DNA of 64,000 bases from Sulfitobacter sp. S190. Lineage in GTDB: Bacteria > Pseudomonadota > Alphaproteobacteria > Rhodobacterales > Rhodobacteraceae. Position numbers and translations under genes: made by a program. Positions within the stretch are counted from its first letter, which is position 1, and the number at the start of each line of letters is the position of its first letter. Of this stretch, positions 14,836 to 52,736 are shown piece after piece. The notes under the pieces were generated by a model. That model made no database searches. It was not told the origin of the DNA and was given only the letters and a program-made list of their open reading frames with translations. The stretch is from contig NZ_CP081120.1 of NCBI RefSeq assembly GCF_025141935.1, positions 1 to 64,000 of the forward strand, written 5' to 3'.

Positions 14836-14837
14836 AG

Positions 14838-24752: not shown

Positions 24753-24796
24753 CGGCGCACCCTTGCGGCCCGCCCTGCGCAAGGTAGGGTGCGGCC

Positions 24797-25270
24797 ATGC
24801 CCGATATGTCCCTCTCACTCACGCTGGATGGCCCGGATGCCACGGCCCGCTGTGCCGCATGGCTGGGCGCGCGCCTGTCGGCAGGGGATACCGTTTTGCT
24901 GACCGGAGACGTGGGGGCGGGAAAGACCCACTTCGCCCGCGCCTTGATCCAGTCTCTGCTCGTCCACCACGAAGACGTGCCATCGCCCACTTTCACGTTG
25001 GTCCAGACCTATGACACACTCCGCGGCGAAATCTGGCACAGCGATCTGTACCGGCTGTCCGATCCCACCGAGATCGAGGAGTTGGGTCTGGTGGATGCGT
25101 TTGACGACGCGATCTGTCTGGTCGAATGGCCCGACCGTCTGGCTGGTCTGTGGCCGCGGCAGGCGCTTGAGCTGACACTTGCGGGCGCGGGCACGCCGGA
25201 GGGCCGACATTTGCAGGCGCGGTGGCAGGATCCGAAATGGCAAAAGATACTGGAAGGATGGAGCGCATGA
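24797..25270 (+). CDS. tsaE: tRNA t6A biosynthesis ATPase TsaE
   Basis: A 157-residue P-loop ATPase with Walker A GDVGAGKTH at 37-45, a SPTFTLVQTY block and HSDLYRLSDPTEIEELGL, all typical of TsaE (YjeE). It cycles the TsaB-TsaD complex during t6A formation on tRNA. The stop overlaps the start of the downstream kinase gene (ATGA). tsaD itself is 12 kb upstream. Confidence 0.95.
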   Translation: MPDMSLSLTLDGPDATARCAAWLGARLSAGDTVLLTGDVGAGKTHFARALIQSLLVHHEDVPSPTFTLVQTYDTLRGEIWHSDLYRLSDPTEIEELGLVDAFDDAICLVEWPDRLAGLWPRQALELTLAGAGTPEGRHLQARWQDPKWQKILEGWSA

Positions 25271-29895: not shown

Positions 29896-32800
29896 AGGCG
29901 CCCGACTGGAACGACGCCACGCGCGCACAGGTCACGGCGGCAAGCCCGGACACATCGACATGGTTGTCGGCCAACGCGGGGTCGGGCAAGACCCGTGTCC
30001 TGACCGACCGGGTGGCGCGGTTGCTGCTGAACCGGGTCGAGCCGCAGCATATCCTGTGCCTGACCTATACCAAGGCCGCCGCCTCGGAGATGCAGAACCG
30101 CCTGTTCCGCCGCTTGGGCGACTGGGCCATGATGGACGATGACGATCTACGGCCCACCCTCCTTGAGATGGGCGTGCTGCAGGATCTGGACGCGGAGGAC
30201 TTGCGCCGCGCACGCACGCTGTTTGCCCAAGCGATTGAAACGCCCGGCGGGTTGAAGATCCAGACGATCCACTCGTTTTGTGCCGCCTTGCTGCGCCGCT
30301 TTCCGCTGGAGGCCGGTGTCAGCCCGCAGTTCAAGGAAATCGAGGACCGTGCCGCCGAATTGCTGCGTGCAGAGATTGTCGACGCGATGGCCGACGGGCC
30401 GGATGCGCCGCTGGTGGCGGGTATCGCGAAATTCTATACGGGCGAAAGCTTTGGCAAGTTGACGCAATCCATCGCGTCACAGCGCGAGGCTTTCGACGCC
30501 GCCGGTCAGGGCGTTGATCTGAATGCCCTGTTCGATCTGCCACCGCATTTTGACGCCGCCGATCTGCCGGCGTGGGTCATCGACAAATCCGTCGCGTCAT
30601 GGCTGCCGACTGCGATCGGGGTGCTGCGCGGGCAGTCGGCGACGATGGTCAAACTGGCCGATACGCTCGACACAATCGACGTTCAGGCGCCGGATGCCGA
30701 TATGCTGCAACTGCTCAAGGAGCTGTTCTTGTACCGCGACAAGAGTGTCCTGAAGCCAGAAGCAAAGACAAAATCCGTGCCGACCAAGAAGGCGCAGGAA
30801 GCATTGGGCCCGACGCTTATCGCGTTTCACGACCTGATGGAGCGGACCGCACAGGCGCATGACATGGAACTGCGGGCGCGCAATGTCGCGCGAACCGGTG
30901 CGCTGCATGCTTTTGCGCGGTCCTTTATCGACCGCTACGAGGCGAAGAAGGTTGAACGCGGCCTGCTGGATTTTGACGATCTGATCCTGCGGGCGCGGAC
31001 TTTGCTGACCGATCCGAAGGTCGCCGCGTGGGTGTTGTATCGGATCGATGGCGGGATCGACCATATTCTGGTGGACGAGGCGCAGGACACATCGCCGCGC
31101 CAATGGGACGTGATCGAGCGGTTGACCGATGAATTCACCAGCGGCGCGGGCGCACGGGCCAAAGAGGACCGGACGCTTTTCGTTGTCGGTGACAAGAAGC
31201 AGTCGATCTATTCCTTTCAGGGTGCCGATCCGCGCGAATTCGATGCCAAGCGCGAGAGTTTCGCAAACCGCTTTGGCGCGGTTGATCTGCCGTTCAGCGC
31301 GGAGACCCTGGACTATTCGTTCCGGTCGTCCGATGCCATTCTCACGGCGGTCGACCAGACGTTGAACCCCCGGATCGATGAGCGCATGCACCACCTTGCC
31401 TTCAAGGACAGATTGCCGGGACGGGTGGATTTGTGGCCCCTTGTCGAGCCGCAGGGCGATGAGGAGGAGGGCGCGTGGTACGAGCCGCTGGACCGTAAAA
31501 GCCCGCAACACCATAGCGTTGTTCTGGGTCAGCAGGTCGCCGACCAGATCAAATATCTTGTGGAGGGGGATCACTATATCCCGGCGGACGGACCGGACAA
31601 AACCACCGTGCGCAGACGCATCACGCCCGGCGATTTTCTGATCCTTGTGCAGGGGCGCAGTGATCTTTTTGCCGAGATCATCCGGGCCTGCAAGGCCGCC
31701 GATTTGCCGATTGCGGGGGCGGACCGGTTGAAAGTGGCTGCGGAGCTGGCGGTGCGCGATATCGGGGCATTGTTGGCATTTCTGGCCACGCCGGAGGACA
31801 GTCTTTCGCTGGCAACCACGCTGCGCTCACCCCTTTTTGGGTGGAGCGAACAGCAGTTGTTCACTCTGGCGCACGGGCGATCGGAAAAACACCTCTGGCA
31901 AGCGCTGCGGACGCAGACGGACATACACCCCGAAACAGTCTCTGTTCTGCAGGATTTGCGCGGTCAGATCGATTTCTTGCGGCCCTATGACCTGATCGAA
32001 CGGCTGTTGACGCGGCACGGCGGGCGGGCGCGGCTGCTGGCCCGTTTGGGAACCGAGGCGGAGGACGGTATTGATGCGCTCTTGGCGCAGGCGCTGGCCT
32101 ATGAGCAGAGCGACATTCCGAGCCTGACCAGATTTCTGGAGTGGATGGAGACCGACGATTTGGAAATCAAACGCCAGATCGACAGCGCGTCGGACCAGAT
32201 CCGCGTGATGACGGTACACGGAGCCAAAGGGCTCGAAGCGCCGATCGTGATTTTGCCCGACACAGCCCTGCGCGCGGATACTGTCAAGGACGAGATCATC
32301 ACGATGGAAGGCGTGCCGATCTGGAAACCCGGCGCGGCCGAAATCACCCAGCGGGTCAGCACGCGGCTCACCGAGATAAAGGAGGCGCAGCGGCAAGAAC
32401 GCCTGCGGTTGCTGTATGTGGCGATGACGCGTGCGGAAAAATGGCTGATCGTGGCCGCCGCCGGGCGGCTGAACAAGGAGCCGGACAGCTGGTACCAGAT
32501 GATCGAACAGGCGCTGGGCCACCTGAACGCGGTGCCGTTTTCGGAAGGCCCGTCGCACGGTCTGCGCTATCAAACCCACGACTGGGACGGCCTGCCGGTG
32601 AAAGCGGTTCAGCGGCAGACACGGAAAACCCCCGAATTAGACCCGCTTTTCATCCGAAAGATCGGGCAATTGCCGGATCGCCAAGAGACCATCACGCCCT
32701 CTTCGTTCGAGGGTGCCAAGGCGCTGGCCGGTGACACCGGTCAGGACGAGGAGGCGGCGAAGGCTTATGGCACATTGGTGCATTTACTGCTGGAGCATCT

Positions 32801-33272
32801 GGCCCCCCTGCCCGCCGGTGACAGGTACGATGTTGCGGTCCGGTTGACAGCGACTCGCCCCGCCGAGGTTGCATCGCGCGCCATTGCGGAGGCGATGGAT
32901 GTGCTGGCCGCGCCGGCGTTGGCCCCGATTTTTGCGCCGGATGCGCTCGCGGAAGTCGCGGTTACCGCAGATTTGGGCGGCACGCCGATGTACGGTATCA
33001 TCGACCGGTTGATCATCGGCGAGCGGGACGTTCTGGCCGTGGATTTCAAGACAAATCGCACGGTTCCCGAGCATGCCGCCGACACGCCAGAGGGGTTGTT
33101 GCGCCAGATGGGGGCATACGGCCACGCGCTGCAGCAGGTGTATCCCGATAAAAACATCCGCTGCGCGATCCTGTGGACACAGGCGCAAACGTTGATGGAA
33201 CTGGGTCCCGACGCGATCAAGGGCGCATTGTTCCGCAGTGGTCATCTTGACGCAGGTCAGCCGCGTTCATAG
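29892..33272 (+). CDS. addA: Double-strand break repair helicase/nuclease AddA
   Basis: A 1126-residue UvrD-like helicase fused to a RecB nuclease. Helicase motifs in order are ANAGSGKT (27-34), LTYTKAAASEM, VDEAQDTSPRQWD, GDKKQSIYSFQGA, the VMTVHGAKGLEAPIV block and LLYVAMTRAEKWL. The nuclease motif AVDFKTNRT lies near residue 1050. With AddB it degrades and processes DNA ends. The start ATG overlaps the addB stop by four bases, so the two subunits are coupled. Confidence 0.96.
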   Translation: MKAPDWNDATRAQVTAASPDTSTWLSANAGSGKTRVLTDRVARLLLNRVEPQHILCLTYTKAAASEMQNRLFRRLGDWAMMDDDDLRPTLLEMGVLQDLDAEDLRRARTLFAQAIETPGGLKIQTIHSFCAALLRRFPLEAGVSPQFKEIEDRAAELLRAEIVDAMADGPDAPLVAGIAKFYTGESFGKLTQSIASQREAFDAAGQGVDLNALFDLPPHFDAADLPAWVIDKSVASWLPTAIGVLRGQSATMVKLADTLDTIDVQAPDADMLQLLKELFLYRDKSVLKPEAKTKSVPTKKAQEALGPTLIAFHDLMERTAQAHDMELRARNVARTGALHAFARSFIDRYEAKKVERGLLDFDDLILRARTLLTDPKVAAWVLYRIDGGIDHILVDEAQDTSPRQWDVIERLTDEFTSGAGARAKEDRTLFVVGDKKQSIYSFQGADPREFDAKRESFANRFGAVDLPFSAETLDYSFRSSDAILTAVDQTLNPRIDERMHHLAFKDRLPGRVDLWPLVEPQGDEEEGAWYEPLDRKSPQHHSVVLGQQVADQIKYLVEGDHYIPADGPDKTTVRRRITPGDFLILVQGRSDLFAEIIRACKAADLPIAGADRLKVAAELAVRDIGALLAFLATPEDSLSLATTLRSPLFGWSEQQLFTLAHGRSEKHLWQALRTQTDIHPETVSVLQDLRGQIDFLRPYDLIERLLTRHGGRARLLARLGTEAEDGIDALLAQALAYEQSDIPSLTRFLEWMETDDLEIKRQIDSASDQIRVMTVHGAKGLEAPIVILPDTALRADTVKDEIITMEGVPIWKPGAAEITQRVSTRLTEIKEAQRQERLRLLYVAMTRAEKWLIVAAAGRLNKEPDSWYQMIEQALGHLNAVPFSEGPSHGLRYQTHDWDGLPVKAVQRQTRKTPELDPLFIRKIGQLPDRQETITPSSFEGAKALAGDTGQDEEAAKAYGTLVHLLLEHLAPLPAGDRYDVAVRLTATRPAEVASRAIAEAMDVLAAPALAPIFAPDALAEVAVTADLGGTPMYGIIDRLIIGERDVLAVDFKTNRTVPEHAADTPEGLLRQMGAYGHALQQVYPDKNIRCAILWTQAQTLMELGPDAIKGALFRSGHLDAGQPRS

Positions 33273-33308
33273 GTTCCATTCGAACGCGCAATTCCTTTGG
33301 AGAGCATT

Positions 33309-33629
33309 ATGGCCACCCTCGCAGTAACAGACGATACCTTCGACGCCGAAGTGAAGAATTCCGACATCCCCGTCGTGGTGGATTTCTGGGCAGAGTGGTG
33401 CGGCCCGTGCAAACAGATCGGCCCGTCGCTCGAAGAGCTGTCTTCGGAAATGGACGGTAAGGTGAAGATCGTCAAAGTGAACGTGGACGAGAACCCGAAC
33501 TCACCCGCACAGATGGGCGTGCGCGGCATCCCTGCCCTGTTCATCTTCAAGGACGGTCAGGTTGTTTCCAACATGGCCGGCGCCCGCCCCAAAGCGGCCC
33601 TGCAAAGCTGGATCGAAGAATCCATCTAA
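33309..33629 (+). CDS. trxA: Thioredoxin 1
   Basis: A 106-residue thioredoxin with active site WCGPC in [17 protein letters not shown] and the conserved cis-proline in [14 protein letters not shown]. It is a general cytoplasmic disulfide reductant. It follows addA by 36 bases with a ribosome site (GGAG) at about 33300. The ATG at 33309 is chosen because an in-frame start at 33297 overlaps that ribosome site. Confidence 0.96.
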
Positions 33630-33636
33630 ATCACAG

Positions 33637-33664
33637 CGCGCGTCAGCCGAAAGCCTGACGCGCG
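33637..33664. terminator. Hairpin between convergent trxA and phosphotransferase genes
   Basis: A perfect 10-bp stem (CGCGCGTCAG / CTGACGCGCG) with an 8-base loop overlaps the last codons of the leftward gene and lies eight bases past trxA. Only a weak ATTTGT tract follows on the plus strand, so termination strength is uncertain. Confidence 0.55.
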
Positions 33665-34653
33665 ATTTGTCTGATCCGTTCGTACCGCAACAGTCCGCGC
33701 AGGCGTGATTTGTCCTGCATGCGGTTCCAGTCGGTCAGCACCTGCACTTTCAGCAAGAAATGAACCGTTGGATCGTCGGCTTCGACAAAGCTGTAGCCAT
33801 CGAAAAACGCGGCGAACGCGTCGGGCGGCACAACGTGTCCGCGCGGCAGCGTGTCGATGTCGCCCACCATCTGGACATAGCTGAGCAACAGCCGCGCGAT
33901 GTCATAGGCAACGGGCGCATTCTGAGGCTCCAGAAAGTCGAGCGCAGCTACGGTGCCATCGCCAATCAGGATGTTGTGGGCGTTCAGGTCACCGTGTTTC
34001 GCCGATATCTTTCCCAGATACCCCTCGGCGGGTTTTGCATGATCGACAAGTGTGGCAGCAAGTTTTCGAAAATCGTTCTGCCCCCTGATTTTGCGTTCTC
34101 CGCGGGCCATTTGATCGGACAGATGCGCCATGTGGCGCACCATGAATTTGGGCTGGAACGCCCGGGTCTGGGTAAATGTGCCCGCGTGAAAAGCCGCGAG
34201 CCACGTACCGGCCGCCCGCAGATGCGCCGTGTGATCGCGCGAGGTGCGGCAAAGGTCGAGCAATGTTTCACCGGGGAAATAGGTCATCAGGCAGGCCTGC
34301 GCTGTGCGGTCCTGCGCCAGAATGTGCGGCACGTGGGCCACGGGGCTGTCTGCCACTGCATCATGCGCCTGCTGCGTCGCGTCGAGGATGCGCCCGAAGG
34401 CGGCAGGATCAGCGGGGCGCATGGCGTATTTCAACACGACCTTTCGACCGGCGCTGTCGTACCGCCTTACGATATGCAGGCGATTTGTGTCGTCTTTGAT
34501 CCACTCCGCCCCACATTTAAACGCATCCGGGTCCAGACCGGCGCGGACGGCCAGATTTTCAAAAGCGATTTGCGCGGATTTTCGAAGCAGCTTGAGCTCT
34601 CGCATCGGGGCTTTCCGGGTTTTGGCCTTGCGAAAGGCAGCCTGCGTTTTCAT
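33643..34653 (-). CDS. Phosphotransferase of the APH/choline-kinase fold, substrate unknown
   Basis: A 336-residue kinase-like protein with the catalytic loop SAKHGDLNAHNILIG and metal motif VAALDFLEPQNAPVAYDIA. An upstream nucleotide region reads CLMTYFPGETLLDL. The N-terminus is basic. The motifs are complete, so it is likely active, but the substrate cannot be inferred from neighbours. The ATG has AGGA six bases upstream. It is divergent from hslV with only 27 bases between, so the hslV promoter may lie inside this gene. Confidence 0.75.
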   Translation of the reverse strand: MKTQAAFRKAKTRKAPMRELKLLRKSAQIAFENLAVRAGLDPDAFKCGAEWIKDDTNRLHIVRRYDSAGRKVVLKYAMRPADPAAFGRILDATQQAHDAVADSPVAHVPHILAQDRTAQACLMTYFPGETLLDLCRTSRDHTAHLRAAGTWLAAFHAGTFTQTRAFQPKFMVRHMAHLSDQMARGERKIRGQNDFRKLAATLVDHAKPAEGYLGKISAKHGDLNAHNILIGDGTVAALDFLEPQNAPVAYDIARLLLSYVQMVGDIDTLPRGHVVPPDAFAAFFDGYSFVEADDPTVHFLLKVQVLTDWNRMQDKSRLRGLLRYERIRQIARQAFG

Positions 34654-34680
34654 ATATCATCCTAACCAAGAGGGGGCTAC

Positions 34681-35238
34681 ATGACCAAAAACGAATTTCC
34701 CGGCTGGCACGGCACGACGATCATCGGCGTACGTAAAGGCGATGAAGTGGTGGTCGCCGGTGATGGACAGGTGAGCCTGGGCCAAACGGTCATCAAGGGA
34801 ACCGCCCGAAAGGTGCGCCGTCTGTCTCCCGGGGGCTATGATGTGGTTGCGGGCTTTGCCGGATCGACGGCGGACGCCTTTACCCTGTTGGAACGGCTGG
34901 AGGCGAAGCTGGAAGCAACACCGGGGCAGTTGGCGCGCGCGAGCGTCGAGTTGGCCAAGGACTGGCGTACGGACAAGTACCTGCAAAAGCTCGAAGCGAT
35001 GCTGATCGTGACGGACGGGACGGATTTGTTCGTGATTACCGGTGCGGGCGATGTTCTGGAGCCCGAGCACGATATTGCGGCAATCGGATCGGGCGGTAAT
35101 TTCGCGCTGGCGGCCGCACGGGGGCTTTTTGACAGCGACCGCGATGCCGAAGCAGTGGCCCGTGACGCCATGCAGATTGCGGCGGATATCTGCGTTTATA
35201 CCAACGGGAACCTGACCGTGGAAAAGATTGGCAAATGA
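34681..35238 (+). CDS. hslV: ATP-dependent protease peptidase subunit HslV
   Basis: A 185-residue Ntn-hydrolase related to proteasome beta subunits. The catalytic threonine is T12, in [11 protein letters not shown], preceded by an 11-residue stretch [11 protein letters not shown] that must be removed. [22 protein letters not shown] and the [15 protein letters not shown] block are typical. It forms a double hexamer capped by HslU. It is coupled through ATGA overlaps to an aldo/keto reductase and then hslU, rather than directly to hslU. Confidence 0.95.
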
Positions 35239-36272
35239 GCGATATGCAGTACACCCGTCTGGGAAATTCCGGCCTGTTGGTGAGCCGGCTGTGCTTTGGC
35301 ACGATGACATTCAATTCCGGTGCCGAATGGATCCCCGGAGTTGGCAAGGTTGATCAAAAGCCCGCCACGGAAATGGTCAGCGCGGCGCTGGATGCCGGTG
35401 TGAATTTCTTCGATACCGCCGACGGATATTCCCACGGTGAGAGCGAAATCATTCTGGGCAAGGCGCTGGGCGAATGCCGCACGGATGCGGTGATTTGTAC
35501 CAAGCTGGGGTTTCGCCAGTCGGACGGTATTCTGGATGCCGGATTGAACCGGCGGCATGTGCTGCACCAGATTGACGGGTGTCTGGCGCGGTTAGGCACG
35601 GATTACATCGATGTACTTGTGCTGCATAAGACCGATTTCGCGACCCCGATGGAAGAAACGCTTGCGGCGCTGCAAACTGCGGTGGAGCACGGCAAGGTGC
35701 GGTATATCGGGGTGTCGAACTGGCCCGCTTGGCAGGTTGCCCGCGCCATTCAGTACCAGCGCGACAACCGGATGACGCCGTTCACCTGCGGGCAGTATCT
35801 GTATAATGCGGTGGTCCGAGATATCGAATTGGCGGAGTTGCCGATGCTGGATGCGATGGGCGGCAGTCTGATGGCGTGGTCACCGCTTGCGGGTGGGCTG
35901 CTGTCGGGCAAATACGATCCAGACGATCTGGGCAAGACAGCGGATGGCCGTCTGGCCGAAGGCGAGTTTCTTGATATTGCGTCGACGCAGGCCAAGGCGA
36001 TGATCAAAACGCTGCAAGGCATCGCGGAGAGCCGCGGCGTTCATATGGCCTCGGTCGCTTTGGCATGGGTTCTGGCGAAAAACCGGACGCATACCGCGAT
36101 CTTCGGGGCCTCGAAGATGAGCCATCTGGACGCGGCGCTTGCCGCTGACAGTTTGGCGCTGGAGGATGACGATATTGCCGCGATCGACGCCGTCGCCGCA
36201 CCGGCAAAACGGTATCCGCAATGGTTTGACACGATGATGACCGACGAACAAACGACAAAGGCGCTTTCATGA
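35235..36272 (+). CDS. Aldo/keto reductase
   Basis: A 345-residue NADPH-dependent oxidoreductase of the AKR fold. The catalytic aspartate and tyrosine are in [14 protein letters not shown], the lysine is near ICTKLGFR and the histidine is in DVLVLHKTD. The cofactor region is a C-terminal [12 protein letters not shown]. The substrate is unknown. It sits between hslV and hslU with four-base ATGA overlaps on both sides, an unusual insertion into a two-gene protease operon. Confidence 0.9.
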
Positions 36273-37579
36273 CTGATCTGACCCCCCGCGAAATCGTGTC
36301 CGAGCTGGACAGGTTCATCATCGGCCAGAATGACGCCAAACGTGCCGTCGCCGTCGCCCTGCGCAACCGGTGGCGTCGCAAACAGCTGTCTGATGATCTG
36401 CGTGACGAGGTGTATCCGAAGAATATCCTGATGATCGGACCGACCGGCGTTGGCAAAACCGAGATCAGCAGGCGGTTGGCCAAGCTGGCGCGGGCGCCGT
36501 TTCTGAAGGTCGAGGCGACCAAGTTTACCGAGGTCGGGTATGTCGGCCGCGATGTGGAGCAGATCATCCGTGATCTGGTAGACAACGCGATCGCCATGAC
36601 CCGCGACCACATGCGCGAAGATGTCAAAGCCAATGCGCAATCCGCCGCGGAAGAACGTGTCATCGATGCGATTGCCGGACCGGATGCCCGTTCAGGCACC
36701 CGCGACATGTTCCGCAAAAAGCTCAAGGACGGGCAGCTGGACGATACGATGATCGAACTGGAGGTGGCGGACACGTCGAACCCATTCTCCGCGATGGAAA
36801 TCCCCGGCCAGCCCGGTGCGGGCGGTATGGGTATGATGAACATCGGAGACCTGTTCGGCAAAGCCATGGGCGGACGTACCACCAAGAAACGGCTAAGTGT
36901 GGCCGAAAGCTACGATGTTCTGATCGGTGAGGAGGCAGACAAGCTGCTGGACGATGAAACGGTGACCCGCAATGCGATCGAAGCGGTCGAGCAGAACGGT
37001 ATCGTGTTTCTCGACGAGATCGACAAAGTGTGCGCGCGGTCCGATGCACGGGGCGGGGACGTGAGCCGCGAAGGTGTGCAGCGCGACCTGTTGCCGTTGA
37101 TCGAGGGCACGACCGTCAGCACAAAGCACGGACCGGTCAAGACCGATCATGTGCTGTTCATTGCGTCGGGTGCGTTCCATATCGCCAAGCCGTCCGATCT
37201 GCTGCCGGAACTGCAGGGCCGTTTGCCCATTCGGGTGGAACTGCGGGCGCTGACCGAAGAGGATTTTGTCCGCATCCTGACCGAAACAGACAATGCGCTG
37301 ACCCTGCAATACACGGCCTTGATGGGGACCGAAGATGTCACCGTCAGCTTTACGCCCGAAGGGATTGCCGCGCTGGCCAAGATTGCGGCGGATGTGAACC
37401 AGTCGATCGAGAATATCGGAGCGCGGCGGCTTTATACCGTGATGGAACGGGTGTTCGAGGAACTGAGCTTTACCGCGCCGGACCGGTCGGGCGACGAAAT
37501 CGTCGTGGATCAGGCATTTGTCGACACCAATCTTGGTGCGCTGACCCAATCGACGGACCTGAGCCGCTACGTGCTTTAG
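36269..37579 (+). CDS. hslU: ATP-dependent protease ATPase subunit HslU
   Basis: A 436-residue AAA+ unfoldase. It starts [21 protein letters not shown] and has Walker A GPTGVGKT at 57-64, an inserted I domain rich in glycine/methionine ([18 protein letters not shown]), Walker [13 protein letters not shown] and the C-terminal LSRYVL tail that docks into HslV. It unfolds substrates for HslV. It is translationally coupled to the preceding aldo/keto reductase. Confidence 0.97.
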
Positions 37580-37589
37580 GCTGGTAAAA

Positions 37590-37620
37590 AACCCGTGCGC
37601 CTGTAACCAAGGCGCATGGG
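37590..37620 (-). terminator. Leftward terminator-like hairpin over the MFS start codon
   Basis: Stem TGCGCCT (37596-37602) with AGGCGCA (37610-37616), optionally extended by CCC/GGG, is followed on the minus strand by T6 (A6 at 37586-37591). On the plus strand the same hairpin buries the weak ribosome site and reaches the A of the MFS ATG. It could stop antisense transcription or limit translation. Confidence 0.45.
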
Positions 37621-38842
37621 GTATTTGCGTTTTCTCATCGACAACCGCCTGTTTCTGCTGGCCGGATTCCTGCTGACGTTCACGTCGTCTTTCGGCCAGA
37701 CGTATTTCATCTCGCTTTTTGCCGGTGACATCAAAGCGGCGTTTGCCCTGAGTGACGGGGCGTGGGGCGGCATCTATTCGCTGGGCACGACCCTGTCGGC
37801 GATCACGATGGTCTGGGCGGGCGTGCTGACGGACCGGTTTCGCATCAGGCAATTGTCACTTTGGGTGATGGTTCTGCTGGCTGCGGCCTGTCTGTCGATG
37901 GCTGTGGTGCCGAACGCGATTTTTTTGGTGCTTGTGATCTATGCGCTGCGGCTGACCGGACAGGGCATGATGTCACAACTGGGGGCCGTGGCCATGTCAC
38001 GGTGGTTTGTTGCGGCGCGCGGGCGGGCGATTTCGCTGGCGTCCATGGGGTTCGCGGCGGGGCAGGCGTTGCTGCCCGTGATTTTCGTGGCACTTTTCGC
38101 GGTGCTGAACTGGCGCGCCCTGTGGGTGGTCGCCGCGGTGTGCACGCTGGTGCTGATCCCCGTCATGCAGATTTTGCTGCGCCGCGAACGCACGCCGCAA
38201 TCCATGGCCGAGGATGTTCAGACATTCGGGATGCAGGGCCGCCACTGGACCCGCCGCGATTTGCTGCGCCATCCGCTGTTTTATTTGATGATACCGCTGA
38301 TCCTCGGACCGGGAGCATGGGGGACGGCGCTGTTTTTCCAGCAGGTGCATCTGACGGAAGTGAAGGGATGGAGCCTCGTTTCGTTTGTCGCGCTGATGCC
38401 GCTTTATACGGTGGCGTCGATCGCCACGACGTTTCTATCGGGCTGGGCGGTGGACCGGTTCGGGGTGAGCCGCGTGTTGCCGCTGCAGCTTTTGCCTTTC
38501 GGGGTGTCGTTCGTGGTGCTCGCCTATGCCGATACGATTTTCATGGCCGGTGTGGGGATGGTCATTTTCGGCATTGGCCAAGGGTTGCACGGGACAGGGG
38601 CGACGGCGTTCTGGGCCGTTTATTACGGGACGCGGCATCTGGGCGCGATCAAGGCGGTGGCCGCAGCGTTAATGGTATTCGGATCGGCGATCGGACCCGG
38701 AATTACCGGCGTTCTCATCGACTTCGGTGTGGATTTCCCACAGCAGATGCTGCCGATCGCCCTGTTCTATTTTGGCGGGGCGATGCTCGCGCTGGTCGGC
38801 GTGCGCCGGTACGGTCGGCACCTGCCTAGCGATGGCGCCTGA
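37616..38842 (+). CDS. Major facilitator superfamily transporter
   Basis: A 408-residue protein with about 12 hydrophobic helices and the MFS loop motif after helix 2 (GVLTDRFRIRQLS). The second half repeats it as SGWAVDRFGVSRVLP. The N-terminal TFTSSFGQTYFISLFAGDIKAAF block resembles monocarboxylate/oxalate-formate type carriers. The substrate is unknown. The start codon lies at the foot of a hairpin. Its 3' end overlaps the convergent smr gene by 17 bases, with no terminator between. Confidence 0.85.
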   Translation: MGYLRFLIDNRLFLLAGFLLTFTSSFGQTYFISLFAGDIKAAFALSDGAWGGIYSLGTTLSAITMVWAGVLTDRFRIRQLSLWVMVLLAAACLSMAVVPNAIFLVLVIYALRLTGQGMMSQLGAVAMSRWFVAARGRAISLASMGFAAGQALLPVIFVALFAVLNWRALWVVAAVCTLVLIPVMQILLRRERTPQSMAEDVQTFGMQGRHWTRRDLLRHPLFYLMIPLILGPGAWGTALFFQQVHLTEVKGWSLVSFVALMPLYTVASIATTFLSGWAVDRFGVSRVLPLQLLPFGVSFVVLAYADTIFMAGVGMVIFGIGQGLHGTGATAFWAVYYGTRHLGAIKAVAAALMVFGSAIGPGITGVLIDFGVDFPQQMLPIALFYFGGAMLALVGVRRYGRHLPSDGA

Positions 38843-39419
38843 GATAGACGTAGTAGGCGCCTCCACCACCGTGGCTGATGTGAGCCTGCGCAACCTGCAG
38901 AACCACTGACGACATCGGCTGCATCTTGAGCCACTGGGGAACCTGATGGCGCAGCACGCCCATACGTGTGGGGATCGGGCCGCCCTCGTCGCGGTGTTTG
39001 CCCTTGCCGGTGATGACGAGGACCAGCCGTTTGCCCTGAGCATGGGCGTTCATGACAAAACTGGTCAACGCGGGGTGCGCGCGATCCAGTGTCATACCGT
39101 GCAGATCGATCCGGCCCTCGGGGCGTAATTTGCCGCGCTTCATCTTGCCAAAAGACTTGTTATCCATTTGGACGGGGGTGCGGGCAATTTGTTCGTCTAT
39201 CGCGGGGGCGAGACTGTGCGGGCGGGCGGGCGACTTGCCTTTCGGCTTGCCAAGGATCGTCGCCTGCGCCTTGCGCACCGTTGCGGGCGTGGTTTCGGGC
39301 TGCGGCATATCCACCACAAACCGTGCTTTGGCGAGGCTGGTTTTGGTCAGCCTGTCGGTACGCGCGGCGACCTGATTCCACAGATCAAGCTCATCCTGAC
39401 GCAGTTTGCGCCGGGTCAT
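38826..39419 (-). CDS. Smr (small MutS-related) domain protein
   Basis: A 197-residue protein with a basic N-terminal half and a C-terminal Smr domain. The domain has RIDLHGMTLDRAHPALTSF, LVLVITGKGKH and QAHISHGGGGAYYVYLRR. Smr domains are endonucleases acting on nucleic acids, and the LDLHG and GKG motifs are intact apart from an I for L. The gene is coupled to mltA upstream (ATGA overlap), an arrangement common in alphaproteobacteria. Confidence 0.88.
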   Translation of the reverse strand: MTRRKLRQDELDLWNQVAARTDRLTKTSLAKARFVVDMPQPETTPATVRKAQATILGKPKGKSPARPHSLAPAIDEQIARTPVQMDNKSFGKMKRGKLRPEGRIDLHGMTLDRAHPALTSFVMNAHAQGKRLVLVITGKGKHRDEGGPIPTRMGVLRHQVPQWLKMQPMSSVVLQVAQAHISHGGGGAYYVYLRRHR

Positions 39420-40516
39420 ATCGCACTTTCCGGCAGCAGGGCATAAGCACGCTGGATCGGCATCAAGACCAACAGCCGACCGGGATCGCGCAGGCGGCCG
39501 GCAGCACGGCCCGCGTCATCGCCGGTGCCAAAGAACACGTCGGCGCGTTGTGCCCCCTTGATGGCGGAGCCGGTATCCTGGGCGACCATGAGGCGGCGCA
39601 GGGGGTCGGCCCCGTCTTTCTCGATCCAGACGGGTGCTCCCAGCGGGACAAAGGCAGGGTCAACGGCCACGGTGCGCATCGTGGTGATTGACCGGTTCAT
39701 CGCGCCCAGCGGTCCTTTGTCAGCGGGGACTTTGCTGACCTCGCGGAAAAAGACGTAGGACGGATTGTGGTAGAGCAATTCCTGACCGTCGACGGGGTTA
39801 CGACGCACCCAGTTCTTGATCACCTGTGCGCTGACCTGATGGGCCTCGTAAATGCCGCGGCGGACCAGTTCTTTACCGATGGAGCGGTAATCATGGCCGT
39901 TCGATCCGCGGTAGCCAACACGGATGGACCGCCCGTCGGGCAAACGAATACGGCCAGAGCCCTGAATCTGCAGAAAGAAAAGCTCAACCGGATCGTCGAC
40001 ATAGGCGATGGTCAGCCCACGGCCATCCATGATGCCGCTTTCGAGAATGGCACGGCGGGTCAACCACGGGCGCTTTTCGCGCGCTTCGGGAGGCATCTTG
40101 TAAACGGGGTAGCGGTAGCGGGCGGAGCGGTAGAGCGATCCTGTCAGCTCCGGTTCGAAATAGCCGGTGAAAAGCGCATCATTGCCGTCCTCCATCAACA
40201 CAGGCCGGAACAGCAGTTCGAAAAATTCGCGTGGATCGGGGCCGGTGCGGGCGTAGGCACACAGCGTTTGCCAATCGGGTTCTTTCAGATCCTGACAGGT
40301 GTTGAGGAAAGTCTGGAACGCGTCGGCGTGGTTGTCGCTTTCCCAGCCATCCAATTGATCGAAGGACAGCACGTCATAGCGTATTTCAGCCGTGACCGGC
40401 CCCGCGAGAAGCAGGGCCAGCACAACGGCAAAGCTGCGCAGCGCGCAGTTTACCCATCTGTGGAAACGAGGAACCAATTTGGATCTTCCGAACCCATGTT
40501 GCGGGCAAATACCCAC
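39416..40516 (-). CDS. mltA: Membrane-bound lytic murein transglycosylase A
   Basis: The protein is about 350-366 residues. After a basic start and a signal peptide (SFAVVLALLLAGPVTA) comes the MltA domain with FTGYFEPELTGS, then a 3D domain with MRTVAVDPAFVPLG, VAQDTGSAIKGAQRADVFFGTG. It cleaves glycan strands to 1,6-anhydro-MurNAc products. The start is uncertain. The frame opens with GTG at 40516, and a TTG at 40477 would also keep the signal peptide. Either way it overlaps the tim44-like gene. Confidence 0.9.
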   Translation of the reverse strand: MGICPQHGFGRSKLVPRFHRWVNCALRSFAVVLALLLAGPVTAEIRYDVLSFDQLDGWESDNHADAFQTFLNTCQDLKEPDWQTLCAYARTGPDPREFFELLFRPVLMEDGNDALFTGYFEPELTGSLYRSARYRYPVYKMPPEAREKRPWLTRRAILESGIMDGRGLTIAYVDDPVELFFLQIQGSGRIRLPDGRSIRVGYRGSNGHDYRSIGKELVRRGIYEAHQVSAQVIKNWVRRNPVDGQELLYHNPSYVFFREVSKVPADKGPLGAMNRSITTMRTVAVDPAFVPLGAPVWIEKDGADPLRRLMVAQDTGSAIKGAQRADVFFGTGDDAGRAAGRLRDPGRLLVLMPIQRAYALLPESAI

Positions 40517-43547: not shown

Positions 43548-44386
43548 CAGCGCAAAGCCGCGGCCCGGGTCGCGCTGTCGACCGTCGGCCGCTTGCCGAA
43601 CCACCGCTCGAACGCGGGCACGGCCTGATGGAGCAACATCCCGAGCCCGTCGACCGTCACGCAGCCGACCTGTTCTGCGGTGGCCAGAAGGTTCGTTTTA
43701 AGCGGTGCGTACACCAGATCAGTGACTGTCATGCCCTTGCGCAGCCCGTCTAGCGGTACGCGCAATTCGCCTTTTCCCACCATACCGAGCGACGTGGTGT
43801 TCACCACAAGTGCGGCGTCGTCGATCATGTTGCCCGCCTGAACCCAGTCATAAACGTGCAGTCTTTGGCCGAAATCGGACTGCAATTTTTCGGCGCGCAC
43901 ACGGGTACGGTTGGCAATCCGGATTTCGGGCACACCAGCATCCAGCAGCGAGGCAACGACCGCGCGTGCGGCGCCGCCCGCACCCAGAACCGCGGCGGGA
44001 CCCGAGCGGGGATCCCACATCGGCGCACCGGCCTTCAGGTTTTCCAAGAAACCGTACCCGTCCGTGTTATCGGCGTGAATCATTCCGTCCTTGCGGAAAA
44101 TCAATGTGTTGGCGGCCCCGATCAGAATGGCCCGGTCGGTGACAAGATCGGCAATTTCCATCACCGCCTCTTTATGTGGAATAGTGACGTTGCACCCCAC
44201 AAAGCCCATTGCCGGCATGGTACGCAGCACCCGTTCGAGATCATCGCCCGCGATGTCCATCGGGATGTAATGGCCGGAAATGCCGTAGGTTTTCAGCCAA
44301 TGGCGGTGAAGCTGGGGCGATTTCGAGTGGGCAATGGGTGAACCGATCACCCCGGCGAGGGGTATACGCGCAAGTGTATTGGTCAT
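43547..44386 (-). CDS. aroE: Shikimate dehydrogenase (NADP+)
   Basis: A 279-residue enzyme. The N-terminal substrate region has GVIGSPIAHSKSPQLH and CNVTIPHKEAVM with the catalytic lysine. The NADP domain has VLGAGGAARAVVASLLDAG followed by RIANRTRVRAEKL. It reduces 3-dehydroshikimate in aromatic amino acid synthesis. It overlaps maf upstream by four bases and coaE downstream by one. Confidence 0.97.
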   Translation of the reverse strand: MTNTLARIPLAGVIGSPIAHSKSPQLHRHWLKTYGISGHYIPMDIAGDDLERVLRTMPAMGFVGCNVTIPHKEAVMEIADLVTDRAILIGAANTLIFRKDGMIHADNTDGYGFLENLKAGAPMWDPRSGPAAVLGAGGAARAVVASLLDAGVPEIRIANRTRVRAEKLQSDFGQRLHVYDWVQAGNMIDDAALVVNTTSLGMVGKGELRVPLDGLRKGMTVTDLVYAPLKTNLLATAEQVGCVTVDGLGMLLHQAVPAFERWFGKRPTVDSATRAAALR

Positions 44387-44982
44387 GTGTCGATGTCTCC
44401 GCGCAGGGCAAGATAGCTTAGCATTTCCAGCAGTGGCATACCGAGAACGTGAAAGTAATCCCCCTCGATCCGGGTGAAGAGCCGCACACCTTCCTCCTCG
44501 AGCTTATAGCTGCCGACGCTGTGCTGAATGCTGTCCCAGTTGCGATCCACGTAGCCGGAAAGATAGCTGTCGCTTGCATCGCGCATGCGCAGCCTGACCT
44601 GCCCGATATGCCGCCACAGGGGTTTGCCGTCCTGGGCGATCACGGCGGCCGACAAAAGGGTGTGGCGATCGCCGTTCAACGCATGCAGTTGGGTCAGCGC
44701 GTTTTCGGCGCTGGTCGGTTTGCCGAGCAGTGTTCCGCGATGTTCCAGAACCTGATCGCACCCGATCACGAGCGCGCCGGGATGTTTGTCCGATACCTTC
44801 AACGCTTTCAGCTCGGCAAGTTTATCGGCGATGTCACGCGGGGGGGCATCCTCCGCCAAAAGGGACCTCTTAATCGTTTCTTCATCGATGCGGGCCACGA
44901 TAACCTCATGGGCGACACCCGCCTGACGCAAAAGCTGCGCGCGGATCTGTGACCCGGAAGCAAGAATGATGGGGACACTCAT
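44383..44982 (-). CDS. maf: Maf-like nucleoside triphosphate pyrophosphatase
   Basis: A 199-residue Maf-family protein with the opening IILASGSQIRAQLLRQAG, the catalytic GCDQVLEHRGTLLGKP region and a C-terminal EGDYFHVLGMPLLEML block. Maf proteins hydrolyse modified or canonical nucleoside triphosphates. The exact specificity is not clear here. It is the first gene of the leftward maf-aroE-coaE-dnaQ operon. A perfect DnaA box overlaps its start codon, so its promoter lies inside the probable origin. Confidence 0.94.
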   Translation of the reverse strand: MSVPIILASGSQIRAQLLRQAGVAHEVIVARIDEETIKRSLLAEDAPPRDIADKLAELKALKVSDKHPGALVIGCDQVLEHRGTLLGKPTSAENALTQLHALNGDRHTLLSAAVIAQDGKPLWRHIGQVRLRMRDASDSYLSGYVDRNWDSIQHSVGSYKLEEEGVRLFTRIEGDYFHVLGMPLLEMLSYLALRGDIDT

Positions 44983-45388
44983 GTGGATAACCCTCTGCGT
45001 AACAGCGTGAACGGTGCGGGGGCTTTTGTCGGAAATTTGGGATCACGGCGCAAGGGCACCGTTTTCACGGCATTCCGGGATTCAATGCCAGAGTTTTACG
45101 GGGATGGAGAAGGATAAAAGGATGCCTGTGCGTTTCACGTTTCCGCAACCTGTTTCCCCAAGTCTATCCACAGAAAATATGCAAAGTGATAATTTATAAA
45201 GCACTGAAAATATTGTGAAAATATTAGAAATCGGTAATTATCCAGACCACTTATCCTGCTGGCGGGGGATGGCGGATAAGGCTGAGGATAAACATTTAAT
45301 CCACAGAAAATCGCTTCCCTACACAAAACATCAATCTTTCTTTCTTTCTATATTATATTAAGGAAGGCTCAGAACCGGAGAGATACCT
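44982..45388. other. Probable chromosomal replication origin (oriC)
   Basis: This 400-base gap without a gene holds a cluster of DnaA boxes. The box at 44982-44990 is exact (TTATCCACA, minus strand). Boxes with one mismatch lie at 45164-45172, 45238-45246, 45283-45291 and 45297-45305. TTATCC cores lie at 45109-45117, 45251-45259 and 45271-45279. Positions 45171-45240 have only 16 G/C in 70 bases and contain an 11-bp tandem repeat, a likely unwinding element. Genes diverge from it (maf-aroE-coaE-dnaQ left; hemJ-rho-mnmE-mnmG-rsmG-parAB right), and two parS sites lie 3-5 kb away. The neighbourhood resembles the Caulobacter origin. Confidence 0.82.
45205..45226 (+). repeat. 11-bp tandem repeat in the AT-rich part of oriC
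   Basis: TGAAAATATTG is followed directly by TGAAAATATTA. The core GAAAATAT occurs a third time at 45173-45180. Repeats of about one helical turn in an AT-rich block next to DnaA boxes fit a DNA unwinding element. Confidence 0.7.
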
Positions 45389-45838
45389 TTGACCGATTTT
45401 CTGAGCATTGCTTACCCATGGATCAAAGCGGTCCATATCATGGCCGTCATCTCGTGGATGGCCGCGTTGTTCTACTTGCCGCGTTTGATGGTGCACCACA
45501 CCGAAAAGGTCGGGTTGAGCGGCGAAACGCACGACTTGTTCGCCATGATGGAATACAAGCTTGCCAAGGTGATCATGTCACCAGCGATGATGGCCACATG
45601 GGTGTTCGGGCTGTTGTTGGTCCTAACCCCCGGGATTGTCGATTGGGGCGCTGTGTGGCCCTACCTGAAGGGTGCAGGGGTCATCGCTATGACAGTGTTT
45701 CATGTGTGGCTGATGCGCCGGATGCGGGGCTTTCAACGTGCAGAGAATACGCTGACAGGGCGGCAGTACCGGTTGATGAACGAAGTGCCCACGGTGCTGA
45801 TGATCCTGATCGTCGTGTCTGTGTCCGTCAAATTCTGA
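45389..45838 (+). CDS. hemJ: Protoporphyrinogen IX oxidase HemJ
   Basis: A 149-residue membrane protein with four helices and the HemJ/UPF0093 features. The conserved histidine is in WIKAVHIMAVISWMAALFYLPRL (quoted in part), then HVWLMRRMRGF and a C-terminal RLMNEVPTVLMILIVVSVSVKF region. It oxidises protoporphyrinogen to protoporphyrin in haem synthesis. The start is TTG with CCGGAG about nine bases upstream. It is the first gene to the right of the probable origin. Confidence 0.9.
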   Translation: MTDFLSIAYPWIKAVHIMAVISWMAALFYLPRLMVHHTEKVGLSGETHDLFAMMEYKLAKVIMSPAMMATWVFGLLLVLTPGIVDWGAVWPYLKGAGVIAMTVFHVWLMRRMRGFQRAENTLTGRQYRLMNEVPTVLMILIVVSVSVKF

Positions 45839-48557: not shown

Positions 48558-48573
48558 TGTTTCACGTGAAACA
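48558..48573. promoter_or_regulatory. parS site 1, exact ParB palindrome at the mnmG start
   Basis: TGTTTCACGTGAAACA is a perfect 16-bp palindrome matching the parS consensus for chromosomal ParB. It spans the mnmG translation start. The GTG start codon is the right half of the central CACGTG. parA and parB lie 2.5-3.3 kb downstream. Confidence 0.95.
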
Positions 48574-50428: not shown

Positions 50429-51033
50429 GCGAGAAAAGCGCCGCAAATGTTTCACGTGAAACATTCGACAGATTAAAAGCGTTTGAAGCGCTTGCGGTGA
50501 AGTGGACCAAGAAGATCAACTTGGTCTCCTCTAATGACAGTCAGCACATTTGGGACCGGCATATCGTTGATTCACTACAGGTGTACCAACTGGCACCAAC
50601 CGAAGGCGATTGGCTCGACCTCGGCAGCGGTGGTGGGTTCCCCGGTCTGGTAGCCGCGATATTGGCGAAAGAAGCGCAGCCTGCGCGGCGTTTTACGCTC
50701 GTCGACAGTGATCAGCGCAAGTGTACGTTCCTTCGAACGGTAGCGCGGGAGCTGGAATTAAACGTATCAGTACTAAGCGAGCGGATAAACGATGTGCCAC
50801 CGCAAGATGCGTCAGTCGTCTCCGCGCGTGCTCTTGCAGAATTATCAACGCTTCTCGAATTTGCCGACCGCCATATGCGCGCGGATGGTATCGCTTTATT
50901 CTTGAAGGGTGCGCGTTGGCGCGAAGAAAGTGCTGACGCAAAACGCAAATGGCAGTACGTTGAAGAGGCGGTTCAGAGCGAAACCAATCCCGACGCTGTT
51001 ATTTTGAAGATCAAGGAGCCTGTACGTGTCTGA
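50425..51033 (+). CDS. rsmG: 16S rRNA (guanine-N7) methyltransferase RsmG
   Basis: A 202-residue SAM-dependent methyltransferase with [20 protein letters not shown], the SAM loop [17 protein letters not shown] and [13 protein letters not shown]. It methylates G527 of 16S rRNA. Residues NVSRETF near the N-terminus are encoded by a parS palindrome. The ATG overlaps the mnmG stop, and the end overlaps the parA GTG start by eight bases, so mnmG-rsmG-parA-parB form one coupled block. Confidence 0.95.
50448..50463. promoter_or_regulatory. parS site 2, exact ParB palindrome inside rsmG
   Basis: A second exact copy of TGTTTCACGTGAAACA lies within the rsmG coding sequence, encoding VSRET, 1.89 kb from the first copy and about 0.6 kb before parA. 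Confidence 0.95.
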
Positions 51034-51853
51034 TCTTTCTCGTCCTCAAGGACCGAAAATTGTGGCAGTTGCGAACCAGAAGGGTGGTGTGGGCAAGACC
51101 ACGACCACAATTAACCTTGCCGCGGCTTTGGCGGAGGAGGGGCTTCAGGTTCTGGTTATCGATCTGGACCCACAGGGCAATGCATCGACAGGGCTGGGCA
51201 TTGATTTGGATGACCGGGAATTCACGACCTACGAGCTGCTGCTCGAGGACATTGATTTGAAGAATGTGATCCTGCCCACGGAGACCCGTGGACTGTCCAT
51301 CGTGCCTGCGACTGTAGATCTGAGCTCGGCGGATCTTGAGCTTCTTACCAATGAGAAGCGCAGCTTTCTCCTGCATGATGCCCTGCGGCAAACGCAAATG
51401 GATCAATTCGCCTTCGACTATATCCTGATCGACTGCCCCCCGTCGCTTAATCTTCTGACAGTGAACGCAATGATTGCATCCCATTCGGTGCTCGTGCCGC
51501 TGCAGAGCGAGTTTTTCGCGCTTGAGGGTTTGTCCCAGCTGATGCTGACGATCCGCGAGGTCCGGCAAGCAGGCAACAAGGATCTGCGTATTGAGGGGGT
51601 TGTCCTCACGATGTACGATCGTCGGAATAATCTATCGCAACAGGTTGAGGCAGATGCGCGTCAGAACCTTGGCGACCTGGTCTTTCGGACGATGATCCCG
51701 AGAAACGTCAGGGTGAGCGAGGCGCCAAGTTTTGCGATGCCGGTATTGAGCTACGACAGCCAATCGAAGGGCGCAATCGCCTATCGTGAGTTGGCCCGCG
51801 AGCTTTTGAAAAATAACAAGATTGAAGCCAAAGAGGTGCAGCATGTCGAATAG
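51026..51853 (+). CDS. parA: Chromosome partitioning ATPase ParA (Soj)
   Basis: A 275-residue deviant-Walker ATPase with KGGVGKTT at 19-26, LVIDLDPQGNASTGLG and ILIDCPPSLNLLTVNAM. The short N-terminus marks it as chromosomal type Ib/Soj rather than plasmid ParA with an HTH. It forms the gradient that moves ParB-parS complexes. The start is GTG and overlaps rsmG by eight bases. parB begins inside its last codons. Confidence 0.96.
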   Translation: MSDLSRPQGPKIVAVANQKGGVGKTTTTINLAAALAEEGLQVLVIDLDPQGNASTGLGIDLDDREFTTYELLLEDIDLKNVILPTETRGLSIVPATVDLSSADLELLTNEKRSFLLHDALRQTQMDQFAFDYILIDCPPSLNLLTVNAMIASHSVLVPLQSEFFALEGLSQLMLTIREVRQAGNKDLRIEGVVLTMYDRRNNLSQQVEADARQNLGDLVFRTMIPRNVRVSEAPSFAMPVLSYDSQSKGAIAYRELARELLKNNKIEAKEVQHVE

Positions 51854-52736
51854 TCAGGAGCGAAAGCGGGGCTTGGGCCGGGGGCTTTCCGCGTTGATGG
51901 CTGATGTTACTGAAACAGAGACCATCGTTGCAAAGGGTCCTGCCGCTGCAGATCAAATGGTGCCGATCGAGCGGGTTTCGCCGAATCCGGATCAGCCGCG
52001 CAAACAGTTTGTTCAGGGCGATCTGGATGATTTGGCGGCGTCGATTAAGGAAAAAGGCGTTCTGCAGCCGTTGATCGTGCGCAAGCGCGCTGATGATACG
52101 TTTGAGATTGTAGCGGGAGAGCGGCGGTGGCGGGCGTCGCAGATGGCGCAGCTGCACGAGTTGCCCGTTATCGTGCGGGAATATAGCGACATCGAAGTTC
52201 TCGAAGTCGCGATCATCGAAAATATTCAGCGGGCTGATCTGAATGCCGTGGAAGAGGCGGCCGGATACCGCCAGCTGATGGACAAATTCGGTCATACGCA
52301 GGAAAAAATGGCCGAAGCACTTGGCAAGAGCCGGAGCCACATCGCGAATTTGCTGCGGCTACTCAATCTGCCGATGCCAGTTCTTGATTTGCTGCGGCAA
52401 GGGGATCTGAGCGCGGGTCATGCACGCGCGCTTATCCCAGCGCAAGATCCGATGAAGCTGGCGCAGCAGGTTGTAAAGGGTGGATTGTCCGTCCGTGCGA
52501 CGGAGGCTTTGGTCAAGAAAGAGCAGTCGGCACAGGATGGAACCAAAGCGCCAAAACGGCCACCGTCGGACGAGAAAGACGCCGATACGCGGGCTTTGGA
52601 GGGCGATTTGTCCGCCGGTCTTGGCATGAAAGTTACGCTGAACCATAAGGCCGGCGCGGAGAAGGGCCAGGTAATCGTGCACTACGCTTCAATGGACCAG
52701 TTGGATGAGATTTGCCGTATCTTGGGCGGAAATTAA
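51843..52736 (+). CDS. parB: Chromosome partitioning CTPase/DNA-binding protein ParB (Spo0J)
   Basis: A 297-residue ParB with the KRGLGRGLSALM opening and the CTP-binding N domain (SPNPDQPRKQF, GERRWRAS, IENIQRADLNAVEEA). The HTH domain has KMAEALGKSRSHIANLLRLLNLP and LSAGHARALI, and a C-terminal dimerisation domain follows. It loads at parS and spreads along DNA. It overlaps parA by 11 bases and is convergent with hemW, overlapping by four. Confidence 0.96.
   Translation: MSNSQERKRGLGRGLSALMADVTETETIVAKGPAAADQMVPIERVSPNPDQPRKQFVQGDLDDLAASIKEKGVLQPLIVRKRADDTFEIVAGERRWRASQMAQLHELPVIVREYSDIEVLEVAIIENIQRADLNAVEEAAGYRQLMDKFGHTQEKMAEALGKSRSHIANLLRLLNLPMPVLDLLRQGDLSAGHARALIPAQDPMKLAQQVVKGGLSVRATEALVKKEQSAQDGTKAPKRPPSDEKDADTRALEGDLSAGLGMKVTLNHKAGAEKGQVIVHYASMDQLDEICRILGGN

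What the first reader, a model, noticed from the sequence alone, without database searches (positions are those of the whole stretch)
44982..45388. Probable chromosomal oriC lies about 45 kb from dnaA, between maf and hemJ
Seen: one exact DnaA box, four boxes with one mismatch and three TTATCC cores in about 320 bases. They flank a 70-base block with 16 G/C, in an otherwise GC-rich window. Genes on both sides are transcribed away from it, and two parS sites plus parAB lie within 8 kb. Established: alphaproteobacterial origins, such as that of Caulobacter, lie near hem genes and maf-aroE-coaE-dnaQ and not at dnaA. Inference: window coordinate 1 is a numbering convention.
Basis: partly seen in the sequence, partly recalled or inferred. 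Interest (0 to 1): 0.75.

Follow-up and report, generated by a model that had tools for sequence, protein, structure and literature searches.

The report
Chromosome replication origin between maf and hemJ
The 400-base gap between maf and hemJ is very probably where this marine bacterium (genus Sulfitobacter) starts copying its chromosome, as in its relatives; the one surprise is that local strand composition points about 53,000 bases to the left.

Summary
Observation confirmed; interpretation very probably right. The maf–hemJ gap (44,983–45,388) and its maf edge hold five DnaA boxes in 324 bp, the only such cluster in 824 kb sampled (23% of the chromosome), and the window's most AT-rich 70-mer. 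In 30 Sulfitobacter loci the gap keeps a length near 400 bp and its two edge boxes; it was found in 78 of 80 named family loci, 62 with three or more boxes. The only two exact parS sites lie 3.3 and 5.2 kb to the right. The polar octamer GGGCAGGG switches strand between 33.5 and 45.9 kb. Skew is higher right than left of the gap in 71 of 73 named loci.

From about −7 to 40 kb, fourfold and intergenic sites have right-arm composition, unlike orthologues in nine relatives. No DnaA-box cluster was found at the tract's left end, its octamers keep left-arm polarity, and the last 5 kb before the gap are shifted less than half as much. I read it as a rearrangement scar, not a second origin; unproven. 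Verdict: ordinary alphaproteobacterial oriC beside an unexplained skew tract.

The parts
44982..45388 (.). oriC: maf–hemJ intergenic region including the DnaA box that overlaps the maf start
44982..44990 (-). DnaA box TTATCCACA (exact), overlapping the maf start codon; at the same columns 0 or 1 mismatch in 28 of 29 other Sulfitobacter
45164..45172 (+). DnaA box CTATCCACA; at the same columns 0 or 1 mismatch in 13 of 29 others
45172..45241 (.). most AT-rich 70-mer of the window (15 G/C); holds a one-mismatch IHF-type site at the place where some relatives have the full site
45238..45246 (+). DnaA box TTATCCAGA; at the same columns 1 mismatch in 10 of 29 others
45283..45291 (-). DnaA box TTATCCTCA; at the same columns 0 or 1 mismatch in 10 of 29 others
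45297..45305 (+). right-edge DnaA box TAATCCACA; exact in 27 of 30 and within one mismatch of TTATCCACA in all 29 others
45306..45360 (+). conserved right edge (CCCTAC..., TCTTTCTT, AT-rich), proposed unwinding element
   Evidence: function inferred
44383..44982 (-). maf, left boundary gene
45389..45838 (+). hemJ (TIGR00701, 126.5 bits, below its cut-off of 138.05), right boundary gene
48558..48573 (.). parS, exact 16-mer at the start of mnmG/gidA
50448..50463. parS, exact 16-mer near the start of the next gene (rsmG; that name is recalled, no model passed)
51026..52736 (+). parA-type ATPase (Pfam AAA_31, CbiA; no NCBIfam cut-off passed) and parB (TIGR00180 passed)
1..1368 (+). dnaA, 44 kb left of oriC and pointing towards it
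1..40500 (.). part inside the window of the tract with right-arm skew (it begins near −7 kb, on the far side of base 1; the right end, near 40 kb, is approximate)

Best explanation
The maf–hemJ gap is the chromosomal oriC. DnaA loads on the boxes from the maf start codon to the right-edge box TAATCCACA. DNA bending at an IHF-type site in the AT-rich middle helps the complex form. The T-rich and AT-rich strip next to hemJ opens, and two forks leave, one over maf–aroE–coaE–dnaQ and one over hemJ–rho–mnmE–gidA. ParB on the two parS sites then segregates the copies. Shown here: the boxes, their rarity, their conservation, the gene order, parS, the octamer polarity switch and the skew step in relatives. 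Inferred: DnaA and IHF binding, where the DNA opens, and origin activity. The displaced skew minimum of this genome is most likely a compositional scar of the tract from −52 to about −5 kb (relative to the gap) and not another start.
For: Only cluster of three or more boxes per 400 bp in 824 kb; P about 4e-10. Top box cluster in the fetched stretch of each of 11 genomes. Gap length 389–415 bp in 30 of 30 Sulfitobacter loci. In 80 named loci, which include some of the same Sulfitobacter genomes, the gap was found in 78, median 406 bp, three or more boxes in 62 of 78, ATCCACA within 125 bp of hemJ in 54 of 78. Skew higher right than left of the gap in 71 of 73 named loci with enough sequence; by fourfold sites in 60 of 69. 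The pooled profile of nine relatives steps at the gap. GGGCAGGG runs 77 leading to 2 lagging in 30 arm samples that exclude the origin region; within −80 to 124 kb all 10 exact sites up to 33,530 are on − and all 3 from 45,946 are on +. The only two exact parS sites are 3.3 and 5.2 kb away. An IHF alpha gene is present.
Against: In this genome the local cumulative skew minimum is near −8 kb. From −52 to −5 kb, orthologous fourfold sites are shifted by +0.18 to +0.27 against nine relatives, and the tract matches the right arm at fourfold sites (R +0.155 against +0.130) and between genes (+0.041 against +0.051). Its dnaA-block shift is the highest of 51 genomes, z 3.6. The last 5 kb before the gap still lean the same way (+0.073±0.051 fourfold, +0.100±0.038 all third positions). 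With the looser pattern GGGNAGGG one site at 18,229 has right-arm polarity. In five relatives the octamer switch lies between −14.9 and −5.9 kb, left of the gap, and in four of them strands are mixed further out. In relatives too the left side is not a mirror of the right (R −0.015 against +0.110). No exact CtrA or IHF site here.
Confidence: 0.89

Rival explanations
1. Replication in this lineage starts about 52 kb to the left, upstream of dnaA, and the maf–hemJ cluster is an old or minor origin.
For: Local cumulative skew minimum near −8 kb. Fourfold and intergenic skew in the tract equal the right arm, with no sign of decay. dnaA, dnaN, recF and gyrB would be co-directional with replication. 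The octamer polarity switch far from the origin lies between the samples ending at 1.62 and starting at 1.70 Mb, so by my arithmetic a start near −7 kb gives slightly more equal arms. The last 5 kb before the gap lean the same way.
Against: No box cluster between −62 and −46 kb; the best score there is 5, against 17 at the gap. The supposed switch falls among ordinary metabolic genes. The last 5 kb are shifted by +0.073±0.051 where about 0.2 is expected. All six exact GGGCAGGG sites in the tract have left-arm polarity, and four have no counterpart at a similar codon in relatives. The gap is not decayed: 8 of 94 conserved columns differ, with five of 30 genomes worse.
Confidence: 0.07
2. The box cluster is a DnaA reservoir or a regulatory site for maf and hemJ, and no origin.
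For: Boxes sit at both gene starts, and one overlaps the maf start codon.
Against: The skew step at this gap in 71 of 73 named loci, the polarity switch and parS are not expected of a reservoir.
Confidence: 0.03
3. Chance cluster in an AT-rich gap.
For: The gap has 44% G+C in a 61% G+C window, which raises chance matches.
Against: The two edge boxes stand at the same columns in nearly all relatives; gap length is held near 400 bp across a family.
Confidence: 0.005

Closest known systems
Caulobacter crescentus Cori (between hemE and COG1806; five DnaA boxes, five CtrA sites, one IHF site; from passages of PMC1914354)
   Same: A haem gene beside it, several DnaA boxes, an AT-rich stretch, an IHF-type site; length of the same order. 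The maf–aroE–coaE–dnaQ neighbourhood in Caulobacter is recalled, not tested.
   Different: Boundary genes are maf and hemJ. No TTAA-N7-TTAA site in this genome (10 of 30 Sulfitobacter have one).
Rhodobacteraceae oriCs predicted with Ori-Finder in 101 strains (PMC6699656, passages seen)
   Same: DnaA boxes, a local G+C minimum and closeness to parAB were criteria there, and all three hold here.
   Different: That work also used closeness to the GC-disparity minimum, which here lies about 53 kb away locally. The passages I saw give no boundary genes and no motif map.
Basal unwinding system with DnaA-trios (PMC8287927, passages seen)
   Same: A DnaA box followed by a strip that can be read as trinucleotides; some Sulfitobacter have 8–12 NAN trios in a row.

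Membership tests
Alphaproteobacterial chromosomal oriC | cluster of DnaA boxes well above chance | tested here: met
   5 in 324 bp; only cluster in 824 kb
Alphaproteobacterial chromosomal oriC | AT-rich stretch inside the cluster | tested here: met
   15 of 70 G/C, lowest in the window
Alphaproteobacterial chromosomal oriC | conserved intergenic element beside a hem gene | tested here: met
   30 of 30 genus loci, 78 of 80 named loci; the hem gene is hemJ, not hemE
Alphaproteobacterial chromosomal oriC | parS and parAB nearby | tested here: met
Alphaproteobacterial chromosomal oriC | polar octamers change strand at the origin | tested here: met
   switch between 33,530 and 45,946; in five relatives between −14.9 and −5.9 kb from the gap, so a coarse marker
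Alphaproteobacterial chromosomal oriC | GC-skew minimum at the site | tested here: not met
   local minimum near −8 kb in this genome. The step is at the gap in G010, G045, G061 and G041 but not clearly in G002, and in nine relatives pooled. Skew is a usual sign, not part of the definition
Alphaproteobacterial chromosomal oriC | IHF site | tested here: inconclusive
   one mismatch, at the conserved place
Alphaproteobacterial chromosomal oriC | start of replication in living cells, DnaA binding, autonomous replication | not testable with these tools
   needs cells or DNA in hand
Caulobacter-type CtrA-controlled Cori | TTAA-N7-TTAA sites in the origin | tested here: not met
   none in the window; 10 of 30 Sulfitobacter, 17 of 78 named loci
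Basal unwinding system (DnaA-trios) | at least three NAN trios within 16 bases of a box | tested here: not met
   run of one after the right-edge box of the window; other boxes not tried

The most novel reading that the evidence does not exclude
In this lineage, forks have for a long time run rightward through about 47–52 kb on the left of the classical oriC. That would mean an active start, without a DnaA-box cluster, upstream of dnaA, coexisting with a conserved maf–hemJ origin: an origin shift caught in progress. The weak left-side skew seen across Rhodobacteraceae would be a milder form of the same thing.
Probability: 0.08. Interest if true: 0.75.

Novelty: new member of a known kind. Interest (0 to 1): 0.35.

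Why it matters
It places the chromosome start about 45 kb from dnaA, so tools and records that set base 1 at dnaA misplace the origin here. It gives a motif map for Rhodobacteraceae origins (DnaA boxes at both edges, an IHF-type site in the middle, CtrA-type sites in some species) that can be tested in culturable strains. It also gives a clear case where local GC skew alone would name the wrong place.

Tried and rejected
Simple inversion of the dnaA block: rejected as the whole story, because the order of the genes with orthologues from −52 kb to the gap matches G052, G057 and G006 and exact-octamer polarity is left-arm. Foreign DNA: not supported; G000 groups with G041, next to G013 and G002, both in a tree of block genes and in one of genes right of the gap (11 genomes). 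With 51 genomes and dnaA-block proteins G041 falls elsewhere, so that pairing is not a firm relationship. Transcription bias: rejected, as + and − genes shift the same way. Flip by inverted repeats at the tract ends: no shared 16-mer in either orientation between −62..−46 and −8..20 kb; the best blastn match there is a 25-base, 92%, inverted one (E 0.02) near −51.2 and −1.3 kb, too weak to count but near both ends. A second box cluster upstream of dnaA: none found. dif by an E. coli-like pattern with up to 3 mismatches: no match. G002 has the second-highest dnaA-block shift but is rearranged there; I did not build on it. A bug in my gap finder left all gap lengths blank and the script ended with an error; its skew values were printed before that and stand, and the gaps were redone. 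GC3 for −7..0 kb (+0.139) first suggested that the shift reaches the gap; split by gene, −7..−5 kb carries most of it and the last 5 kb less. GANTC is not enriched in the gap, nor is the IHF motif in the other orientation. The gene calls behind all codon-site counts come from a simple caller of my own, which missed coaE; standard errors treat sites as independent.

Full report
What is there. The gap between maf and hemJ, with the edge of maf, holds one exact DnaA box and four with one mismatch between 44,982 and 45,305, plus three bare TTATCC cores. Across 824 kb of this chromosome (window plus 38 samples) there are 87 such boxes, and no other 400-bp stretch has three. The chance of five in 324 bp is about 4e-10. 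The most AT-rich 70-mer of the window, 15 G/C, is inside. Genes over a curated NCBIfam cut-off: dnaA, dnaQ, coaE, aroE, maf, rho, mnmE, parB, dnaN, recF, gyrB, mnmG/gidA. HemJ scores 126.5 bits, just under its cut-off. ParA is a ParA/MinD-type ATPase by Pfam. rsmG is named by recall and place.

Conservation. HemJ was sought in 62 Sulfitobacter genomes and found in 59. The genus name comes from record titles. In the 30 loci kept, the gap from maf to my hemJ anchor is 389–415 bp. The box over the maf start codon has at most one mismatch in 28 of the other 29. The right-edge box TAATCCACA is exact in 27 of 30 and within one mismatch of TTATCCACA in all 29 others. The three inner boxes are less regular: 13, 10 and 10 of 29. 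In 80 named Rhodobacteraceae loci, some of them the same Sulfitobacter genomes, the gap was found in 78, median 406 bp, range 330–442, with three or more boxes in 62; ATCCACA stands within 125 bp of hemJ in 54 of 78. TTAA-N7-TTAA occurs in 17 of 78 named gaps (shuffles 1.6) and 10 of 30 genus gaps (0.6); in the named set 16 of the 17 lie 21–24 or 191–228 bases from maf. An IHF-type motif in one orientation occurs in 21 of 78 (shuffles 2.0), 16 of them 189–208 bases before hemJ; the other orientation is not enriched (3, shuffles 2.5). The window has neither exactly, but has a one-mismatch IHF-type site at the same place. A conserved strip follows the right-edge box. Ten or more species could read it as 8–12 DnaA-trios, but at a spacer of 21–24, beyond the published limit, and the window does not.

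Chromosome polarity. GGGCAGGG was found as the most polar octamer by comparing 13 right-arm and 17 left-arm samples that exclude the origin region: 77 on the leading and 2 on the lagging strand. It resembles KOPS, a name I recall. From −80 to 124 kb, ten sites up to 33,530 are on − and three from 45,946 are on +. The looser GGGNAGGG has one contrary site, at 18,229. The forward-strand sites that one search listed begin at 45,946; the list was cut before the end. The far switch lies between samples ending at 1.62 and starting at 1.70 Mb. Both exact parS sites of the genome are at 48.6 and 50.4 kb. In 43 genus genomes with both genes on one contig (my tally by hand; a 44th, G003, left out because its contig length was not known) dnaA points towards maf–hemJ in 40, from the left in 23 and from the right in 17; it points away in 3. 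Distances run from about 40 to 406 kb.

The result against. Cumulative GC skew over −80 to 124 kb is lowest near −8 kb, and nearly the whole window has right-arm skew. This holds for + and − genes. R below is the mean of the skew of + genes and of − genes, both read on the + strand. Compared with orthologues in nine relatives, fourfold sites are shifted by +0.18 to +0.27 in every group of genes from −52 to −5 kb before the gap. Just left of the tract the shift is −0.014±0.059. In the last 5 kb before the gap it is +0.073±0.051 (all third positions +0.100±0.038). Right of the gap it is +0.019±0.042 at 0–5 kb and +0.069±0.051 at 5–10 kb. The tract equals the right arm at fourfold sites and between genes. 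Its flank from −125 to −53 kb is near zero (R +0.023), and left-arm samples average only −0.031 against +0.080 on the right, so the left arm is weakly skewed in general; but no left-arm sample beyond −60 kb reaches the tract's +0.12 to +0.15. Among 51 genomes its dnaA block is the most shifted. Gene order is unchanged against close relatives. No phylogenetic break was seen and no long repeats at the ends, only one weak 25-base inverted match.

Weighing. A working start at −52 kb predicts a shift of full size up to the gap, probably a box cluster there, and rightward octamers. The last 5 kb are shifted by less than half, no cluster is found, and all six exact octamers in the tract are of left-arm type; four have no counterpart at a similar codon in the orthologues (positions compared without a codon alignment). 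A tract with its own two ends suggests that the segment once lay the other way round and came back. That needs two inversions with close to the same ends and no good repeat to explain them, and the fourfold sites show no decay, so it is only the lesser difficulty. I leave it unexplained. In four of five relatives profiled singly the step is at the gap; G002 has its lowest points near −30 and +70 kb and is rearranged. Nine relatives pooled step at the gap. Of 80 named loci, 73 have enough sequence; skew is higher right than left in 71, and in the window too (+0.104 against +0.046). On re-checking, the third-position value for the last 5 kb weakened one argument against a left start; I therefore moved the rival from 0.06 to 0.07, the novel case from 0.07 to 0.08 and the main reading from 0.90 to 0.89.

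What is known. Ori-Finder, with curation by GC-disparity minimum, local G+C minimum and parAB, placed oriC in 101 Rhodobacteraceae; eight strains stayed unresolved (PMC6699656, passages). parAB is advised as an anchor for ori, and dnaA lies close to ori in Rhodobacterales (PMC8116508, passages). Alphaproteobacterial origins were defined by hemE boundary genes and DnaA, CtrA and IHF sites, and skew was found insufficient in several species (PMC1914354, passages). Of PMC6315104, PMC7901474, PMC6473078, PMC2877005 and PMC8287927 I saw passages only; those passages give no Sulfitobacter origin map. The rows shown by my five paper searches (14 of 14, 20 of 84, 20 of 33, 20 of 168 and 12 of 32 hits) include no title on a Sulfitobacter origin; that speaks of those rows, not of print.

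Noticed in passing
window −7 kb to about 40 kb (L020 from about 13,700, and window 1–40,500): Tract with right-arm skew at fourfold and intergenic sites but left-arm octamer polarity and unchanged gene order; no explanation fits all of it.
   Followed up: partly
L129–L208, 10 kb on each side of hemJ: Strand asymmetry at oriC is one-sided across Rhodobacteraceae: pooled fourfold R is −0.015 on the left and +0.110 on the right, where mirror values are expected.
   Followed up: partly
G010, G045, G061, G041, G002 stretches: GGGCAGGG polarity switches between −14.9 and −5.9 kb, left of maf–hemJ, in these five relatives, not at the box cluster; strands are mixed further out in all but G041.
   Followed up: no
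maf–hemJ gaps of 78 named loci: TTAA-N7-TTAA (CtrA-type) sites are about ten times over chance and sit at two preferred places, in an order where CtrA control of origins is, as far as I recall, not established.
   Followed up: partly
window 48,775–49,401, inside mnmG/gidA: A weaker group of DnaA-box-like sites about 3.8–4.1 kb right of oriC is among the five best clusters in 5 of 11 genomes (G000, G002, G052, G006, G047).
   Followed up: no
L020:9690-13715: APP1-type phosphatase, tdh, kbl and a helix-turn-helix regulator between serA and a thiolase gene; no orthologue found in several relatives, partly shared with G013 and G002; they lie at the left end of the skew tract.
   Followed up: no
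window 45389: hemJ starts with TTG here, with ATG or GTG in the other 29 aligned Sulfitobacter.
   Followed up: no
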